64,000 bases of DNA from Betaproteobacteria bacterium HGW-Betaproteobacteria-11 (lineage in GTDB: Bacteria; Pseudomonadota; Gammaproteobacteria; Burkholderiales; Rhodocyclaceae): contig PHCV01000002.1 in the NCBI GenBank assembly GCA_002842395.1, positions 62,001-126,000 on the forward strand, written 5' to 3'. The position numbers and the translations under genes were made by a program. The notes below the pieces were generated by a model. It worked only from the letters and a program-made list of their open reading frames with translations, did not search any database and was not told where the DNA came from. Positions 1,760 through 57,235 of the stretch are shown piece by piece; the stretch's first letter is position 1; each line of letters opens with the position of its first letter.

Positions 1760-3849
1760 TTGCCGAACAATCCCTTCAGTTTGTCTTTCATCTTGTCGCC
1801 CGCCTTTTGCTGGATTTCCTGCTTTTTCTCGCTCACCTTGGCCTCGATCTTTTCCTTGGCGGCTTCCGTCACCAGATTGCCGAGCTCGATCTTCCAGGCC
1901 GGGTCGGCGAACGGCCCGAAGAGCCGCACCGGGATGGTAATGCCTTTGAGTTGCGCCAGATCCTTGCCCTCCTGCCCGGCGCTGGTCGCCACCACGCTGG
2001 CCTTGGCGAGGTAATCGAGCCGCTCGTGACCGAGGTCGATATCCCCCGCGCCGGTAACGCGCAGGAAGGGCGATTTGAGCATCAGGTCGTCGTTGTGCGC
2101 CACGCCGCCGGCGATGCGGAAGCTGGCGGAGAGTTCGGCGAAATCGGTTTTCTCGCTGCTCCGGGCGGCCTGCGTCACCTCCTGCTTGCTGCCCAGGCCG
2201 GCCTTGATCTCGCGCAGGCGCTGCGCCAGGTTGATGCCCTTCACCGCGCCATCCTTCAGGGCGAGGGCCGCGTTGCCGGCAAGCGTCTGCTTCATCGCCG
2301 CCACCGTCTTGCCGCGTCCATTCACGTCGAGCGTCACGTTGCCGCGGCCTTCGAGCACATCCTTGCCGAGCAGGTCCTTGAGCAGGGGCGCGATGCTGAC
2401 ATTGTTCAGCCTCTGCCGCAGGACGACGCCGTTGTCGTTGGCATCGATGCCGAGGCTGCCGTTCGCCGTCCCCTGATACAGGCTGGCGGAAACAGGCGCG
2501 ATGTCGAGCCGGCCGGCGGCGGCCTTGAGCCGGGCATCGAGCCTGGCCAGTTCGAGCCGCCGCACCTTGAGTGCGCCGATGCGTATCGTGCCCGTAAGGT
2601 CCAGATTTTTCAGGGCGGAGAAGTCGAGCGGCGACGGTGCGTTGGCTTGCGTCGTACCCGCACTCGCGGCGCTGCCCGCGGCCTGTGGCGGGAAGTAGCG
2701 ATCGAGATCGAGGCGGTCGATCGACAGATCGAAATTCATCCCGAGCGGCGTGAACTTCGCCAGTTCCAGCCGGGCATCGATCTTCGACTCATCGAACTGC
2801 GTGCCGAGTTCGAGGGCGGCGGTCTGTTGCTTGAGGTCCAGCCGCGCCTGGCCGCGCAGCGGCAGTTGCAGCTGCTTCATCGGCATGCCCGGACTGACCA
2901 GATCGAGGCGGCCGGCGAGCGGCTCCAGCCGGAAACTCTGCGCCGCGAGATTGGCCGCCAACGACGCGGAAAGCCGCGCCTTGAACTGCGTTGCACCCTG
3001 TTTTCCCTCGGCGTTGAAATCGAGTTTCGCCGCCTCCGGCGCCTCCGGCGAACCCTTGAGCCCGGACAGCGTCAGTTGCGCGGCGAGATTGCGTCCCGCG
3101 CCGGTCAGGGTCGCCGACAGGGCGAGCGACTCGCTGCGGCTTTGTTCGGGTGAGAACGCAAGTTGCGGCACCTCGAGCTTGAGCGTGAAGCGGTCATTGC
3201 CCTGCGGCCCCGGCAAGTCACCCTCCGTCATCAGTCGCAGGGCTTCGACCGACAGTGTCTTGCGTTCGCCGTCTGCCAGGAGGCGGCCGGTGGAAAAATC
3301 CAGATCGGAAATCGTGGTCGTTTTGCCACTCGTCTCATCGCGCCAGACGAGGCGCGCGTGGGCGAGCCGGATGTGGCCGATGTCGAGCTTGAGCGGCGCG
3401 CTCGCCGTCTCGCCAGCGCCGACTTTTTGCCCAGGTGCGCCAGCCGTGAGATCGGCGATGTTGAGCCGGCCGTCCTTGTACCTGATCAGCGTGGCCGCGA
3501 GATTCTCGATCTCGGCGCCATCGACCGACACCTGTTTTTTCAGCAAGGGCAGCACGGCCACCGACAACCGTGCCTGCTCGAAGGCAAGAAACGGCGTGGC
3601 GCTGCCGGATTCGGAAAGCGTCGTCCGGCCGAGGCGAACCGCCACGTTCGGCCATAGCGAAAGCTCGAGCGGGCCGCTGATCACCAGTTGCCGCTGGGTC
3701 TTGGCGAGGACGACCTGCGTCAGTTCCTGCTTGATCTTTTCCTCATCGAACAGCGCGTACAGCACGCCAGCCAGCGCCAGCAGCAAAATGGCGACGCTAC
3801 CGGTGGCGATGCCGGCCCGGCGCAGCAAGTTCATGGAACCATTCTTCAT
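1756..3849 (-). CDS. AsmA-family inner-membrane protein
   Basis: About 697 residues (692 if the second ATG at 3834 is used). One N-terminal membrane segment (IATGSVAILLLALAGVLYAL) is followed by a large periplasmic beta-rich region and a DUF/AsmA C-terminal region with repeated sequences such as GRGNVTLDVNGRG and MKQTLAGNAAL. AsmA-like proteins are anchored in the inner membrane and are thought to move phospholipids towards the outer membrane. The open frame continues upstream, but that extension is low-complexity antisense of the neighbouring gene, so I start at 3849. A Lys/Glu/Gln-rich tail ends the protein. It overlaps can by 4 bp. A family A copy at 3403-3428 is read as [10 protein letters not shown]. 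Confidence 0.85.
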   Translation of the reverse strand: MKNGSMNLLRRAGIATGSVAILLLALAGVLYALFDEEKIKQELTQVVLAKTQRQLVISGPLELSLWPNVAVRLGRTTLSESGSATPFLAFEQARLSVAVLPLLKKQVSVDGAEIENLAATLIRYKDGRLNIADLTAGAPGQKVGAGETASAPLKLDIGHIRLAHARLVWRDETSGKTTTISDLDFSTGRLLADGERKTLSVEALRLMTEGDLPGPQGNDRFTLKLEVPQLAFSPEQSRSESLALSATLTGAGRNLAAQLTLSGLKGSPEAPEAAKLDFNAEGKQGATQFKARLSASLAANLAAQSFRLEPLAGRLDLVSPGMPMKQLQLPLRGQARLDLKQQTAALELGTQFDESKIDARLELAKFTPLGMNFDLSIDRLDLDRYFPPQAAGSAASAGTTQANAPSPLDFSALKNLDLTGTIRIGALKVRRLELARLDARLKAAAGRLDIAPVSASLYQGTANGSLGIDANDNGVVLRQRLNNVSIAPLLKDLLGKDVLEGRGNVTLDVNGRGKTVAAMKQTLAGNAALALKDGAVKGINLAQRLREIKAGLGSKQEVTQAARSSEKTDFAELSASFRIAGGVAHNDDLMLKSPFLRVTGAGDIDLGHERLDYLAKASVVATSAGQEGKDLAQLKGITIPVRLFGPFADPAWKIELGNLVTEAAKEKIEAKVSEKKQEIQQKAGDKMKDKLKGLFGK
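3403..3428 (-). repeat. Family A motif, copy 2 (inside the AsmA-like gene)
   Basis: Contains the exact core TCGGCGCTGGCGA on the minus strand, followed by GACGGCG. Read as KVGAGETA in the AsmA-like protein. Confidence 0.9.
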
Positions 3850-52146: not shown

Positions 52147-52374
52147 TCAAACCTGTTTTGCCGCGATAGACCCAGCCTTTGCTTTCGCGATGATTTCCGC
52201 GAGCGTCGGCCTATTCGATGTCACAAATTCAAGTCGGTCTTCAGTCGCGCGAAGCTCTTTCTTTAGCAGCGAAATGACTAAATCGTTTTCACTTTGGGAA
52301 AGCAAAGGAAGCAGGCGTGTGATTTGATCGCAGAGCTTCAGCCGTTTGTTGTCTTCTAACGTGTTGTCCATCAC
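52147..52374 (-). CDS. Small hypothetical protein, possible antitoxin
   Basis: 75 residues, charged and helical (TLEDNKRLKLCDQITRLLPLLSQSENDLVISLLKKELRATEDRLEF). It overlaps the DUF4258-like gene by 4 bp. The pair has the size and coupling of a toxin-antitoxin module, but neither member is proven. Confidence 0.6.
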   Translation of the reverse strand: MMDNTLEDNKRLKLCDQITRLLPLLSQSENDLVISLLKKELRATEDRLEFVTSNRPTLAEIIAKAKAGSIAAKQV

Positions 52375-52649
52375 GCTCTCCTTATCCGTGTCGTCCTAAA
52401 CCCCGTAGTAATCGTTCGATCATCGGAGCTGCTTACGACCTTGTATGCGTTCCGCCACTCTGGAATGAGCTTTCGAACGGGAGATCGCCCCATGTCTCGC
52501 TCCATTTGCCGTACAGATTGTTTATCGAAGTAACGTACTACACCACCATGACCGTCATATTGCTCACGGCCGTAGGTATCCAGGAGGGTGATGATCAATG
52601 GCGGGATGCCCCGTTGTTGGACTCGAATATGTGCATGTGTTGTCAGCAT
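52371..52649 (-). CDS. DUF4258-like small protein, possible toxin
   Basis: 92 residues from the ATG at 52649, with GGAGA five bases upstream (an earlier ATG at 52661 lacks a ribosome site). THAHIRVQQRGIPPLIITLLDTYG resembles the DUF4258 opening; YFDKQSVRQMERDMG and a basic tail follow. DUF4258 proteins are suspected nucleases or toxins. Coupled to the 75-residue gene downstream. Confidence 0.6.
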   Translation of the reverse strand: MLTTHAHIRVQQRGIPPLIITLLDTYGREQYDGHGGVVRYFDKQSVRQMERDMGRSPVRKLIPEWRNAYKVVSSSDDRTITTGFRTTRIRRA

Positions 52650-52661
52650 GAAAGTCTCCAT

Positions 52662-53463: not shown

Positions 53464-53817
53464 AATCGCTGTATGGTGTATGGCGCACCTCATTCAGGTG
53501 CCAAAAATGTACATGTTTTGAATTGACAGTTCAGCCCAAAGGATTCGGCAGCGCAGGTCAGATGCGCCAATTCGGAATTTTGGTGTGCAGCCGTTCTGAA
53601 CGATTTCAGCGCTTGGCGCTTGGCGTTGCCATGGTCCGGTGCACTCACAAAGCTGCTGTTGGCAAAAAAATGGGGTCAGCGGTAGCCGGCGGACCGGATG
53701 ACGCGTTGAATCCGAAAACCCGAGCGTCCGGTGACAATCTGTTGCCGCCACATGACAACGGCGATCCGACGGGCGGCTCAGGGTCGTTCTGAGACCTTGC
53801 CCGTCCCGCAATTAATC
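53464..53817. other. Gap without a supportable gene
   Basis: A hairpin GCACCT-CATTC-AGGTGC lies at 53485-53501. Reading frames on both strands are open by chance but show no ribosome site or known family; the stretch may be relic DNA marking the edge of the island. Confidence 0.35.
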
Positions 53818-54843
53818 TCAACCATCCAAACATTCGCGCAGCACTTCTTCGAGCGCCGGATGTTTGCGTAGTGACCCGTACAGCGTTTTCAACAGCGGCT
53901 TGATCGGCGCGACCATCGGGGCAGGCGCCGCCTTGAAGGCATGCCTGATCGCGGGAGCATCGGTATCGGCGAGTACGGCGCCAAGCAGCAGGGCCTGCTG
54001 CCGGTCTTTCGCGGCCTTTTCCGGCGCGCCGCGCCTTTGCGTGCTCGAATACAGCTTGTGCCAGACGAAGCGCGCGGCCTGCGGCAGGCGCAGCGGAATG
54101 CAGTGGGCGCCGGCCAGCATCGCGCCCGCCTCGGCGCCGTCGAGCAGGTAATCGTAGTGGGGCACGGCTTGCGCCGACCATTGCAGTTCGGGAATGTTCA
54201 CCGTGGCGCCAAGTTTCCTGCCGGGGGCCAGCACATCGACGCGAAGGCCCTGAACTCCCGGCAGCTTGACCGAGGTCGATGGCAAGGTCGAGGGCAAGCC
54301 CGGAACCGCGACGAAGGGCAGGCCGGTCGCCTGCATCGTGGTCAGGAACGGCAGCGGTGCGCCCAGTTTCAGTAGCTGCCGACGCGCCAGGTCGATGTCG
54401 AGTGTTCGCGCCGTCACCGCGATGGCGCCAAGCTCGTTGAGCCAGGCCATGCAGGCCAGCGTGCCGGTAAGGACCAGGCCTGCCTCGAAGGCCTGCCGAT
54501 TGTGCAGTTCGACGAGAACGCGGGCCGTGGCCTTGTCGGCCACCTGAAAGCCGAGTTTGCGCAGGGCCGACACCTGGGCCGAGACCCACTCGCCGAAGGC
54601 CATGCGGCTGCGCATGACTTCCAGCGCGGCGGCATCGCCTTCCTTGCACACCAGTTCTTCCGCGGGTTTGCCGGGCACCGGGTAGAAGACGCGATACCAG
54701 TAGCCGTAACCGGTTCCGCTGCGCAGGGCCAGCGAGCCGGGCGTGCCCGGCAGCAGCGCGCCGGCGGCCCGGCTTCGTTCCTTCAGTTCCGCGTACTGCG
54801 TGCGGAACGCAAGTTCGTGTTCGCGATACGAGAGGGCTTCCAT
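53818..54843 (-). CDS. GSU2403-family nucleotidyltransferase-fold protein
   Basis: 341 residues. RVLVELHNRQAFEAGLVLTGTLACMAWLNELG and TARTLDIDLARR (D149, D151) resemble the GSU2403 group of nucleotidyltransferase-fold proteins, where the Asp pair would bind metal. The family is distantly like the AbiEii/toxin nucleotidyltransferases; activity is unproven. The gene is GC-rich like the host and has an elaborate twin-palindrome promoter suggesting tight regulation. No obvious partner gene is adjacent. Confidence 0.72.
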   Translation of the reverse strand: MEALSYREHELAFRTQYAELKERSRAAGALLPGTPGSLALRSGTGYGYWYRVFYPVPGKPAEELVCKEGDAAALEVMRSRMAFGEWVSAQVSALRKLGFQVADKATARVLVELHNRQAFEAGLVLTGTLACMAWLNELGAIAVTARTLDIDLARRQLLKLGAPLPFLTTMQATGLPFVAVPGLPSTLPSTSVKLPGVQGLRVDVLAPGRKLGATVNIPELQWSAQAVPHYDYLLDGAEAGAMLAGAHCIPLRLPQAARFVWHKLYSSTQRRGAPEKAAKDRQQALLLGAVLADTDAPAIRHAFKAAPAPMVAPIKPLLKTLYGSLRKHPALEEVLRECLDG

Positions 54844-54845
54844 GA

Positions 54846-54926
54846 CTTACCCCATAATTTCAAAATTCATGGGGTAAGTCTAGCGCATCCCGATTTACCC
54901 CGCAATGCTAATTTTCATGGGGTAAA
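54846..54926 (-). promoter_or_regulatory. Twin TTACCCC...GGGGTAA operators with promoter
   Basis: Two spaced dyads: CTTACCCCAT (54846-54855) with ATGGGGTAAG (54869-54878), and TTTACCCC (54894-54901) with GGGGTAAA (54919-54926), 48 bp apart. On the minus strand -35 TTGCGG (54900-54905), 17 bp, -10 TAGACT (54877-54882) lie between and over them. Each dyad also reads as a seven-codon ORF, MKISIAG and MNFEIMG. Confidence 0.7.
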
Positions 54927-54955
54927 TACCGGCACGCGGTTCGCATGGAAGCGCG

Positions 54956-56281
54956 TCAGCGATGCCGTTGGCCGCTGTGATGAGCGACCGGCTTGCCGCC
55001 ACCGGCGCCGGCACGCGATGAACGGCCGGCGCCGTTGCGCCCGCCGGCCGGGGCCGAAGGGCGTGGCGCATGACGCACCGGCGGGCGACCGGCGGGTGGC
55101 CGTGGCGAGGCGTGTTTCTGCTGCGGCTCGAAGCCGGGCAGGATGCTGGACTCCAGCTCGCGCTTGAGCAGGCGCTCGATGTCGCGCAGTTGAATGCGTT
55201 CGTCGATGCTGACCAGCGAGATGGCCTGGCCGCTGGCGCCGGCGCGGCCGGTGCGGCCGATGCGGTGGATGTAGTCTTCCGGCACGTGCGGCAGTTCGAA
55301 ATTGACCACATGCGGCAGGCTGTCGATGTCGATGCCGCGGGCGGCGATGTCGGTCGCCACCAGCACGGCCAGCTTGCCGGATTTGAAATCGGCCAGCGCA
55401 CGGGTGCGCGCATTCTGCGATTTGTTGCCGTGCAGGGCGGCGGAGCGGACGCCCGACTGGTCGAGCCGCTTGGCCAGCGCGTCGGCGCCGTGCTTGGTGC
55501 GGCAGAAGACCAGCACCTGGTGCCAGCCATGGGCTTCGAGCAGATGCAGCAGCACCTCCTTTTTCTGCGCCTGATCGACGCGAATCACCGACTGGGCGAC
55601 CAGTTCGGCCGGCGCGTTGCGGCGGGCGACTTCGACCAGCGCCGGATTCTTGAGGATGCCGTGGGCCAGTTCGCGCACTTCGGGGGCGAAGGTGGCGGAA
55701 AAGAGCAGGTTCTGCCGCTGTTTCGGCAGCTTGGCGATGATCTTGCGGATGTCGTTGATGAAGCCCATGTCGAACATGCGGTCGGCTTCGTCGAGCACCA
55801 GGGTCTGGATTTTCGACAGGTCGACGGTGCGCTGTTCGAGGTGGTCGAGCAGGCGGCCGGGGGTGGCGACGAGGATATCGATGCCACGGCGCAGGGTCTG
55901 GATTTGCGGATTGATGCCGACGCCGCCGAACACCGCCAGGCTGCGAATGCCGGTGTGCTTGCCGTAGGTGCGCACGCTTTCCTGGACTTGCGCGGCGAGT
56001 TCGCGCGTCGGCACCAGCACCAGCACGCGCGGCGCGGTGTGGGTGAGGCGGGCGAGCGGCGTCGCCGGATCGCTCGCAGTGGCGGGCTGGGTCAGGCGTT
56101 GCAGGATCGGCAGAACGAAAGCGGCGGTCTTGCCGGTGCCGGTTTGCGCCAACGCTTCGAGGTCACGACCGGCGAGGACGTGGGGGATGGCCTGCGCCTG
56201 GATCGGCGTCGGCGTGGTGTAGCCTTGCTCGCCAATGGCGCGCAAAAGCTCGGGGCTGAGCCCAAGTTGGGTAAATTGCAT
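54956..56281 (-). CDS. rhlE: DEAD-box RNA helicase RhlE
   Basis: 441 residues. Q-motif [14 protein letters not shown], Walker [26 protein letters not shown], and [10 protein letters not shown] are all present; the basic, Pro/Gly/Arg-rich tail after residue 385 is typical of RhlE. It unwinds structured RNA, probably in ribosome assembly or RNA decay. Family B cluster 15 is upstream. Confidence 0.95.
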
Positions 56282-56511
56282 GGTGTACCTCTGAAGCCGA
56301 CCGGCCGCGCTGAAATTCAGAGCAACTCAGTCCGGACGGAAACTTCGTGGGGGATGAAACCGGAGAAGCGCGCGAAGCTTGTCGCGCGGCTTTCGTCAGG
56401 CACGGCCGGGGACTGAATCGCGGCCGTTGGGAAAGTGAAGCGGGGCGGACTTTAACACACTGCGGAGCCGACAGGGTGGCCTCCGGCGAAAAGCCCGAGT
56501 CCCCTTCGCTT

Positions 56512-56717
56512 CGTCATTCCGACCCCGGATCGCGTCCGGGGTGACGAAGGCTTTTACCGTCGTTCCGGGCTTGACCCCTGCGCTCCGTCGTTCCGGGCTT
56601 GACCCGGAATCCAGGGATGGCCCTCGGTACTCCGCCTCGATCACCGCCTGGATTCCGGCTCGGGCTACGCCCGTCCGGAATGACGGAGCGCAGGGGTCAA
56701 GCCCGGAATGACGGGGA
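56512..56717. repeat. Family B repeat cluster 15
   Basis: The only cluster outside 23.4-43.2 kb, between rhlE and dps. One forward spacer (CCTCGGTACTCCGCCTCG), CCCCGGATCGCGTCCGGGG and a CGGGCTACGCCCG hairpin. The rest of the 489-bp gap upstream of rhlE shows no gene. Confidence 0.9.
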
Positions 56718-56770
56718 AGGGGCCGGAATGACGGTCCGTGGAGCGCGGGCCGGGGTGACGGCTGCGCGAC

Positions 56771-57235
56771 TCACTCTTCGAGCAGGCTGCGCAGCATCCA
56801 CGCGGTTTTTTCGTGCACTTCCAGGCGCTGGGTGATCAGGTCGAGCGTGGGCTGGTCGTTGGCCTTGTCGAGCAGCGGGATGAGGCCGCGCGCGGTGCGG
56901 GCGACGGCTTCCTGGGCGGTGACCAGATGGCGCACCATGTCCAGCGCCCTGGGTTGGCCCTCGACTTCCTTGATCGAGGCCAGGCGGACGAATTCCTTGT
57001 AGGTGCCGGGCGCGGGACAGCCGAGGGCGCGAATGCGTTCGGCGATCAGGTCGAGCGCGGTCCATTGCTCGGTGTACTGGCCCATGAACATCAGGTGCAG
57101 GGTGTTGAACATCGGCCCGGTGACGTTCCAGTGGAAGTTATGCGTCATCAGGTAGAGCGTGTAACTGTCGGCGAGCAGATGCGAGAGCCCGGCGGCGATT
57201 TTTTCGCGGTCTTTCTTGGCGATTCCGATATCCAT
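56771..57235 (-). CDS. dps: Dps-family ferritin-like protein
   Basis: 154 residues. [46 protein letters not shown] carries the Dps ferroxidase ligands at the subunit interface. The 12-mer stores iron using H2O2 and shields DNA. It is encoded next to the DUF3501/Fe-S/rubrerythrin genes on the same strand, so oxidative-stress functions are grouped here. Confidence 0.93.

What the first reader, a model, noticed from the sequence alone, without database searches (positions are those of the whole stretch)
54846..54926. Twin TTACCCC...GGGGTAA dyads that double as seven-codon mini-ORFs before a nucleotidyltransferase-fold gene
Two spaced palindromes 48 bp apart bracket a good -35/-10. On the sense strand each contains ATG...GGGTAA encoding MKISIAG and MNFEIMG, both seven residues, both ending G-stop because the GGGGTAA arm is the end of the ORF. 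Two such coincidences suggest either a dimeric repressor with rigid spacing or leader peptides. AbiEi-type antitoxins are known to bind paired inverted repeats; I see no such gene here.
Basis: partly seen in the sequence, partly recalled or inferred. Interest (0 to 1): 0.55.

Follow-up and report, generated by a model that had tools for sequence, protein, structure and literature searches.

The report
Self-operator array of a solitary nucleotidyltransferase
Two matching mirror-image DNA sites sit in front of a poorly studied enzyme gene, and relatives of that gene in other bacteria carry sites of the same layout with different letters, which suggests that each enzyme switches off its own gene by binding its private DNA address.

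Summary
The two dyads are real: 31-bp TTACCCC-N17-GGGGTAA at 54847-54877 and 54895-54925, centres 48 bp apart, the only exact sites of this kind in the 2.34-Mb genome. They lie just upstream of a minus-strand PF12281 (GSU2403-type) nucleotidyltransferase gene, 53818-54843.

Homologues show what they are. Of 79 PF12281 loci, 71 have a perfect 8-bp-arm inverted repeat in the 150 bp upstream, against 23 of 316 random windows and 12 of 102 upstream regions of other long ORFs. Two copies are common. Geometry is kept within clades, but the letters change with the protein. No neighbouring gene is conserved (44 loci), and DNA similarity to 29 clade loci spans only dyads plus gene. One genome with two paralogues has its GTTATAC-type dyads at those two genes only.

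Best reading: a private operator array bound by the gene's own product (autoregulation, inferred). The model has an alpha-beta3-alpha N-terminal domain, weakly like integrase arm-binding domains, on a MenT-toxin-like nucleotidyltransferase.

The seven-codon mini-ORFs are not conserved (6 of 47 dyads); their equal length follows from the fixed 31-bp dyad. Spacing is not rigid (39-54 bp). The enzyme's substrate is unknown. No paper found in my searches describes this operator system.

The parts
54895..54925 (-). dyad 1 (distal operator), 31 bp, TTACCCCATGAAAATTAGCATTGCGGGGTAA on the gene strand; holds the proposed -35 and the unconserved mini-ORF MKISIAG
54847..54877 (-). dyad 2 (proximal operator), 31 bp, TTACCCCATGAATTTTGAAATTATGGGGTAA on the gene strand; shares a base with the proposed -10 and covers the expected +1; holds the unconserved mini-ORF MNFEIMG
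54900..54905 (-). proposed -35, TTGCGG (weak, 3 of 6; by eye)
   Evidence: sequence; not found by the promoter scan
54877..54882 (-). proposed -10, TAGACT (by eye); its last base is dyad 2's first base, a placement of TANNNT shared by 17 of 29 clade loci
   Evidence: not found by the promoter scan
53818..54843 (-). PF12281 (NTP_transf_8, GSU2403-type) nucleotidyltransferase, 341 aa; residues 1-97 alpha-beta3-alpha domain, about 99-341 nucleotidyltransferase domain

Best explanation
The twin dyads are a private operator array for autogenous control of the PF12281 nucleotidyltransferase gene. The protein's N-terminal alpha-beta3-alpha domain is proposed to bind each 31-bp dyad as a dimer. Dyad 2 covers the -10/+1 region and dyad 1 the -35 region or just upstream, so occupancy of both shuts off transcription and keeps the enzyme scarce. 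Shown: the dyads, conservation of the architecture in the family members examined, clade-specific sequence, absence of a conserved neighbour, absence of other such sites in the two genomes searched for them. Inferred: that the protein is the binder, that it represses, that it dimerises, and that the enzyme is active and growth-inhibitory (MenT-like fold).
For: 71 of 79 upstream regions have a perfect 8-bp-arm inverted repeat (20-44 bp total) against 23 of 316 random windows of the same loci and 12 of 102 upstream regions of other ORFs of 200 aa or more. Window clade: 18 of 30 loci with two 31-bp dyads, 11 with one, 1 below the cut; Paraburkholderia-type clade 13 of 13 with two. Length is fixed: with free length, 48 of 52 TTACCC/GGGTAA arm pairs are 31 bp end to end, and 26 of 26 CAGTA/TACTG pairs are 23 bp. 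Best arms share on average 6.9 of 9 bases at 60% or more protein identity, 5.4 at 45-60%, 4.1 (below the shuffled 4.6) under 45%, in 76 loci. No neighbour family occurs in more than 3 of 44 loci, and blastn of a 7-kb window stretch against 29 clade loci gives 34 HSPs, none outside the stretch from dyad 1 to the gene's end. One 4.0-Mb genome with two paralogues has three GTTATAC-N(10-26)-GTATAAC dyads in all: two at one paralogue (GTTATACTAG arms), one at the other (GTTATACAAC arms), reversed control 0. TANNNT ends exactly on the proximal dyad's first base in 17 of 29 clade loci; next-best offset 4. The N-terminal model (pLDDT 93.8) has as top VIA-align row the arm-type DNA-binding domain of HPI integrase: Z 4.6, 2.4 A, 52 of 77 residues. 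Among 1609 residue tests the one best associated with operator base 7 (C or A) is Thr at residue 37, in strand 1 (1 of 11 against 16 of 17); Gln60, in strand 3, is the third column (3 of 11 against 16 of 17).
Against: No binding or expression data. Z 4.6 is weak and nearly tied with unrelated rows (4.4), and Foldseek gave nothing at E 0.001 for either model. The residue-operator association is not significant once relatedness is controlled (2 well-supported independent pairs); column 288, outside the domain, also associates, and by plain mutual information only 3 of the top 20 columns lie in residues 36-90. The window's -35 is poor and the promoter scan finds nothing. In the Paraburkholderia-type clade TANNNT at that offset is only 3 of 13. 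11 of 30 clade loci show one dyad only; 8 of 79 loci fail the perfect-arm test, and in a few that pass (e.g. L007) the best repeat found is not the operator-like one. Loci are not independent (near-duplicates in Paraburkholderia and elsewhere). Clade dyads were picked partly by motif.
Confidence: 0.78

Rival explanations
1. The dyads are operators, but for a separate trans-acting regulator encoded elsewhere in the genome.
For: No direct proof that the PF12281 protein binds DNA; its DNA-binding-fold match is weak.
Against: In the two genomes searched for them the sites occur only at the PF12281 gene(s); they change with that protein's similarity and accompany it on plasmids and in many contigs without any constant neighbour.
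Confidence: 0.12
2. Leader peptides: MKISIAG and MNFEIMG are translated and couple to expression of the gene.
For: Both ORFs are open in the window; complete mini-ORFs are 6 on the sense strand and 1 on the antisense strand in 47 clade dyads.
Against: Absent from 41 of 47 dyads; in-dyad ATG is as common on the antisense strand (10) as on the sense (8), and 7 of those 10 are in dyads that begin ATACCC and so lack the antisense TAA (my reading of the sequences). With the proposed promoter, mini-ORF 1 is upstream of +1 and mini-ORF 2 begins at about +1. Equal length is forced by the 31-bp dyad.
Confidence: 0.03
3. RNA hairpins (attenuator or substrate of the nucleotidyltransferase) rather than DNA operators.
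For: Each dyad could fold as a hairpin in RNA.
Against: No wobble bias in arm positions 1-12: sense G-T mismatches 26 against A-C 37 (window clade), 7 against 10 (Paraburkholderia-type clade). Total length is fixed. The -10 placement puts +1 inside the proximal dyad. Rfam gave two matches at E under 1 in 53500-57000, both far below their gathering scores.
Confidence: 0.04
4. Dispersed REP/BIME-like repeats, recombination ends or chance palindromes.
For: The window does hold other repeats.
Against: Exactly two copies in the genome and none at the gene's 3' end; in homologues they stand at the same place relative to the gene; shuffles of the window give none.
Confidence: 0.02

Closest known systems
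AbiE type IV toxin-antitoxin (AbiEi/AbiEii) and the related Rv2827c promoter
   Same: A nucleotidyltransferase gene under inverted repeats overlapping its promoter, two or more repeats, negative autoregulation (PMC7319586, outline with abstract and section 14 read).
   Different: There a separate antitoxin binds 23-bp repeats 3 bp apart (13 bp within pairs in Rv2827c). Here there is no conserved partner gene, dyads are 31 bp with 8-23 bp between them in the window's clade, and the candidate DNA-binding domain lies in the nucleotidyltransferase chain.
MenT nucleotidyltransferase toxins (MenT1, MenT3/TglT)
   Same: Nucleotidyltransferase fold: Z 11.1 (8an5_A, 4.2 A, 178 aligned) and 10.1 (6j7o, 5.3 A, 217 aligned); G127 invariant, D149 and D151 at 90% or more in 48 sequences.
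   Different: 14% identity; extra N-terminal domain; MenT toxins have MenA antitoxins, and MenAT1 does not seem to autoregulate (PMC11375011, abstract start and passages). An aminoglycoside nucleotidyltransferase, ANT(2''), scores Z 9.0, so the fold does not fix the substrate.
Arm-type DNA-binding domain of HPI/P4-like integrases
   Same: Three-stranded sheet plus helix, residues 36-88, Z 4.6 and 4.4.
   Different: No recombinase domain; similarity weak and possibly only topological.
PF12281 NTP_transf_8 / GSU2403 family
   Same: The gene is a member (78.4 bits against cut-off 26.3).
   Different: Nothing on its regulation was found: PF12281 and NTP_transf_8 gave 0 papers, GSU2403 one, a line in an RNA-seq table.

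Membership tests
PF12281 (NTP_transf_8) | Pfam profile match over the curated cut-off | tested here: met
   1e-21, 78.4 bits against 26.3, residues 105-304
PF12281 (NTP_transf_8) | nucleotidyltransferase G...DxD active site (motif recalled) | tested here: met
   G127 invariant, D149 and D151 at 90% or more in 48 sequences
AbiE / MenAT toxin-antitoxin systems | adjacent AbiEi/MenA-type antitoxin gene | tested here: not met
   no neighbour ORF of 80 aa or more recurs in more than 3 of 44 loci, flanks of about 3-4 kb where held; smaller ORFs not tested
AbiE / MenAT toxin-antitoxin systems | AbiEii/DUF1814 Pfam assignment of the nucleotidyltransferase | tested here: not met
   only PF12281 matched at E 0.01; fold similarity only
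AbiE / MenAT toxin-antitoxin systems | winged-helix DNA-binding domain (in the antitoxin) | tested here: not met
   model residues 1-97 are H-E-E-E-H
AbiE / MenAT toxin-antitoxin systems | toxicity neutralised by a partner | not testable with these tools
   needs expression experiments
autogenously regulated operator | repeated dyad sites at the gene's own promoter region, conserved in homologues | tested here: met
   promoter position itself only inferred
autogenously regulated operator | binding and repression by the gene product | not testable with these tools
   inferred only
integrase arm-type DNA-binding domain | three-stranded beta-sheet fold | tested here: inconclusive
   top VIA-align row, but Z only 4.6, 2.4 A, 52 aligned; Foldseek not significant
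leader-peptide attenuator | conserved upstream ORF | tested here: not met
   6 of 47 dyads

The most novel reading that the evidence does not exclude
PF12281 proteins are one-gene, antitoxin-less modules: a MenT-like nucleotidyltransferase toxin or defence enzyme carrying its own beta-sheet DNA-binding domain, which reads a private palindromic address that has been rewritten again and again as the family diverged. DNA binding may serve at once as repression and as sequestration of the enzyme.
Probability: 0.3. Interest if true: 0.72.

Novelty: new variant of a known kind. Interest (0 to 1): 0.52.

Why it matters
It gives a little-studied enzyme family, present in 53 of 398 sampled genomes of the phylum, a regulatory logic and a testable hypothesis: nucleotidyltransferases that carry their own repressor domain and do without an antitoxin gene. 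With over 70 naturally diverged protein-operator pairs in hand it would also be a good natural data set for reading a DNA-recognition code.

Tried and rejected
Leader peptides, RNA hairpins, rigid spacing, dispersed repeats and a conserved antitoxin neighbour were tested and found unsupported. No relative was found in phage records or viral contigs at the thresholds used. PDB sequence search gave nothing at E 1; NCBIfam (E 0.01) and PADLOC (E 1) gave no match to the gene. Searching the class with the bare pattern gave matches in 37 of 274 genomes, while the reversed-pattern control matched in more genomes than that (over 50 by my count of the listing, 39 times in one), so the pattern alone is uninformative away from the gene. 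The search for specificity residues pointed to residues 37 and 60, but tree-controlled pairs are too few to prove it. Foldseek gave no significant match for the N-terminal model; the AbiEi row (6y8q, Z 6.9, 6.1 A) was judged too poor to use. Same-genus genomes: the gene was not found in 8 of 8 others (several incomplete); an rhlE of 83-89% identity was found in 5 of them, and next to the nearest (L126) similarity stops at 54960, beside the rhlE stop.

Rows dropped before counts: L008 (fragment), L042 (wrong automatic start; its dyads are seen) and L111 (short flank); L063, L064 and L089 (partial matches) and L065 (no start found by the script) are not among the 79, L065 being in the clade counts. 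L038 and L039 are the same loci as L046 and L088 and were counted once. Clade dyads were picked by at least 9 of 12 identity to TTACCC/GGGTAA (Paraburkholderia-type ones by CAGTA or TACTG), so the invariance of those letters is partly by selection. In one search L005 and L006 were read on the wrong strand and so count as noise there; 13 of 30 loci were, and they were redone.

Full report
WHAT IS THERE. They are the only exact matches in the 2.34-Mb genome; with up to three mismatches there are 40 places, these two included, against 52 for the reversed control, so no further site stands out. They lie on the upstream side of a minus-strand ORF, 54843-53818, 341 aa, whose only Pfam match at E 0.01 is PF12281 NTP_transf_8, and downstream of an rhlE-type helicase gene that ends at 54956 on the same strand. 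In gene orientation the order is dyad 1 (54925-54895), a weak promoter read by eye, dyad 2 (54877-54847), ATG at 54843.

WHAT HOMOLOGUES SHOW. A relative with 76% identity (L038/L046) has twin TACCCCAT...ATGGGGTA dyads; relatives with 32-35% identity have twin dyads of other sequence (GTTGTGTAAT...ATTACACAAC in L039; TTGCAGTA...TACTGCAA in L043; TCAGTA...TACTGA in L044). A genome-contig scan gave 44 loci, and a PF12281 search over the phylum gave matches in 53 of 398 genomes, 30 loci of which were taken. Scoring 11 outer pairs of a 31-bp dyad, 66 of 16,640 upstream centres score 9 or more against 273 of 646,704 elsewhere in the same loci. With free spacer length, 71 of 79 upstream regions have a perfect 8-bp-arm repeat, against 23 of 316 random windows and 12 of 102 upstream regions of other long ORFs. 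The best repeat is not always the operator itself: in L007, for instance, it is a terminator-like one. Four or more copies of one 8-mer (either strand, up to one mismatch) are present in 48 of 79 against 47 of 316.

ANATOMY. In the window's clade (30 loci) 18 have two dyads and 11 one; the remaining one, L070, has a single degenerate pair of the same length (sequence). The 47 dyads have the consensus TTACCC(A/C)ATAAA.... Length is fixed: with free length and one mismatch per arm, 48 of 52 arm pairs are 31 bp end to end, the other four being 32, 35, 40 and 44. Centre spacing is 39, 39, 40, 44, 46, 47, 48, 50, 50, 50, 51, 51, 51, 51, 52, 53, 53 and 54: clustered, not rigid. In the Paraburkholderia-type clade 13 of 13 loci have two dyads, spaced 43-81 bp, and all 26 CAGTA/TACTG pairs have one length. 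A TANNNT hexamer ends exactly on the first base of the proximal dyad in 17 of 29 clade loci, the next-best offset having 4. In the window this hexamer is TAGACT; the matching -35 is poor, and the generic promoter scan finds nothing. In the Paraburkholderia-type clade the hexamer is at that place in only 3 of 13.

WHY AN OPERATOR, AND WHY ITS OWN. No neighbouring ORF family (80 aa or more) recurs in more than 3 of 44 loci. DNA similarity between a 7-kb window stretch and 29 clade loci runs at most from dyad 1 to the stop codon (34 HSPs, none outside). Arm similarity tracks protein similarity: mean 6.9, 5.4, 4.1 and 4.1 of 9 shared bases at protein identities of 60 or more, 45-60, 30-45 and under 30%, shuffled arms giving 4.6 (76 loci). 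In genome G330, GTTATAC-N(10-26)-GTATAAC dyads exist at exactly three places, two before one PF12281 paralogue (arms GTTATACTAG) and one before the other (GTTATACAAC). A solitary gene whose private sites move and change with it is best explained by the product binding them.

THE PROTEIN. The full model is confident (pLDDT 95.8). Foldseek gives nothing at E 0.001 (best 5uvd, 6e-3). By VIA-align residues about 99-341 match 5uvd (Z 11.5, 4.1 A, 198 aligned) and MenT-type nucleotidyltransferase toxins (8an5_A Z 11.1, 4.2 A, 178 aligned; 6j7o Z 10.1, 5.3 A, 217 aligned); ANT(2'') aminoglycoside nucleotidyltransferase follows at Z 9.0 (4xje, 3.9 A, 160 aligned), so the fold does not fix the substrate. 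Residues 1-97 modelled alone (pLDDT 93.8) are helix, three strands, helix; the top VIA-align row is the arm-type binding domain of HPI integrase (Z 4.6, 2.4 A, 52 aligned), with a P4-like integrase entry at 4.4, but unrelated rows also reach 4.4, so this is a lead. Within the clade, operator base 7 (C or A) goes with residue 37 (Thr in 1 of 11 C-type, 16 of 17 A-type proteins; p 8.8e-6, best of 1609 tests) and with Gln60 (3 of 11, 16 of 17), both in the sheet; column 288 in the C-terminal part associates too, and by plain mutual information only 3 of the top 20 columns lie in residues 36-90. On a tree built without the N-terminal columns there are only two well-supported independent pairs, so this is suggestive, not shown.

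THE MINI-ORFS. An intact seven-codon ORF is in 6 of 47 dyads (window twice, L050, L058, L076 twice); ATG at positions 8-10 occurs 8 times on the sense and 10 times on the antisense strand, complete mini-ORFs 6 to 1. The 6-to-1 ratio is the one result that leans towards translation; by my reading of the sequences it comes mostly from ATACCC-type dyads, which hold 7 of the 10 antisense ATGs and lack the antisense TAA. The common length is set by dyad geometry. By the proposed promoter the first mini-ORF is not transcribed and the second would start at about +1.

RNA OR DNA. Arm mismatches show no wobble bias (26 G-T against 37 A-C; 7 against 10), Rfam gave only two matches, far below their gathering scores, and total length is fixed within each clade: a DNA dimer site fits better than a hairpin.

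COMPARISON. The nearest described arrangement is AbiE: a nucleotidyltransferase toxin with an antitoxin repressor that binds 23-bp inverted repeats (3 bp apart in abiE; two pairs with 13-bp gaps in Rv2827c) overlapping the promoter (PMC7319586, outline with abstract and section 14). This locus works like that in outline but is not a member: no conserved antitoxin gene, different Pfam family, no winged helix. Paper searches for NTP_transf_8, PF12281, GSU2403 and combinations of MenT3, nucleotidyltransferase toxin, arm-type, autorepression, palindrome and operator found no description of PF12281 regulation (listings only, except one GSU2403 table passage in PMC7962754, and passages of PMC11375011). 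Papers outside that open library are not covered.

VERDICT. Real, conserved and functionally interpretable; the operator reading is about 0.78 likely, and the toxin/one-gene-module reading is more speculative (0.3).

Noticed in passing
window, exact copies at 3413, 27162, 29532, 32307, 41842, 42265, 49126, 59219: The 13-mer AAGTCGGCGCTGG occurs 14 times with up to one mismatch (8 exact) against 0.3 expected; similar words can be seen in flanks of L064, L127, L128, L129 and L130, so it looks like a dispersed REP-like repeat of these bacteria.
   Followed up: partly
56557-56714: Long inverted repeat with 40-nt arms, 95% complementary, 78 nt apart, rich in GTCATTCCGG-type words, between the rhlE-type gene and the next gene.
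   Followed up: no
52147-52661, minus strand: Two small overlapping ORFs (96 and 75 aa) in a toxin-antitoxin-like layout, without any Pfam match.
   Followed up: no
L110 and L105 upstream regions: Some PF12281 relatives carry arrays of about four (L110) or three (L105) dyads rather than two.
   Followed up: no
54956 and same-genus genomes: The gene was not found in the 8 other same-genus genomes searched, some incomplete; an rhlE of 83-89% identity is in 5 of them, and next to the nearest one similarity ends at the rhlE stop, as a single-gene gain or loss would leave it.
   Followed up: partly
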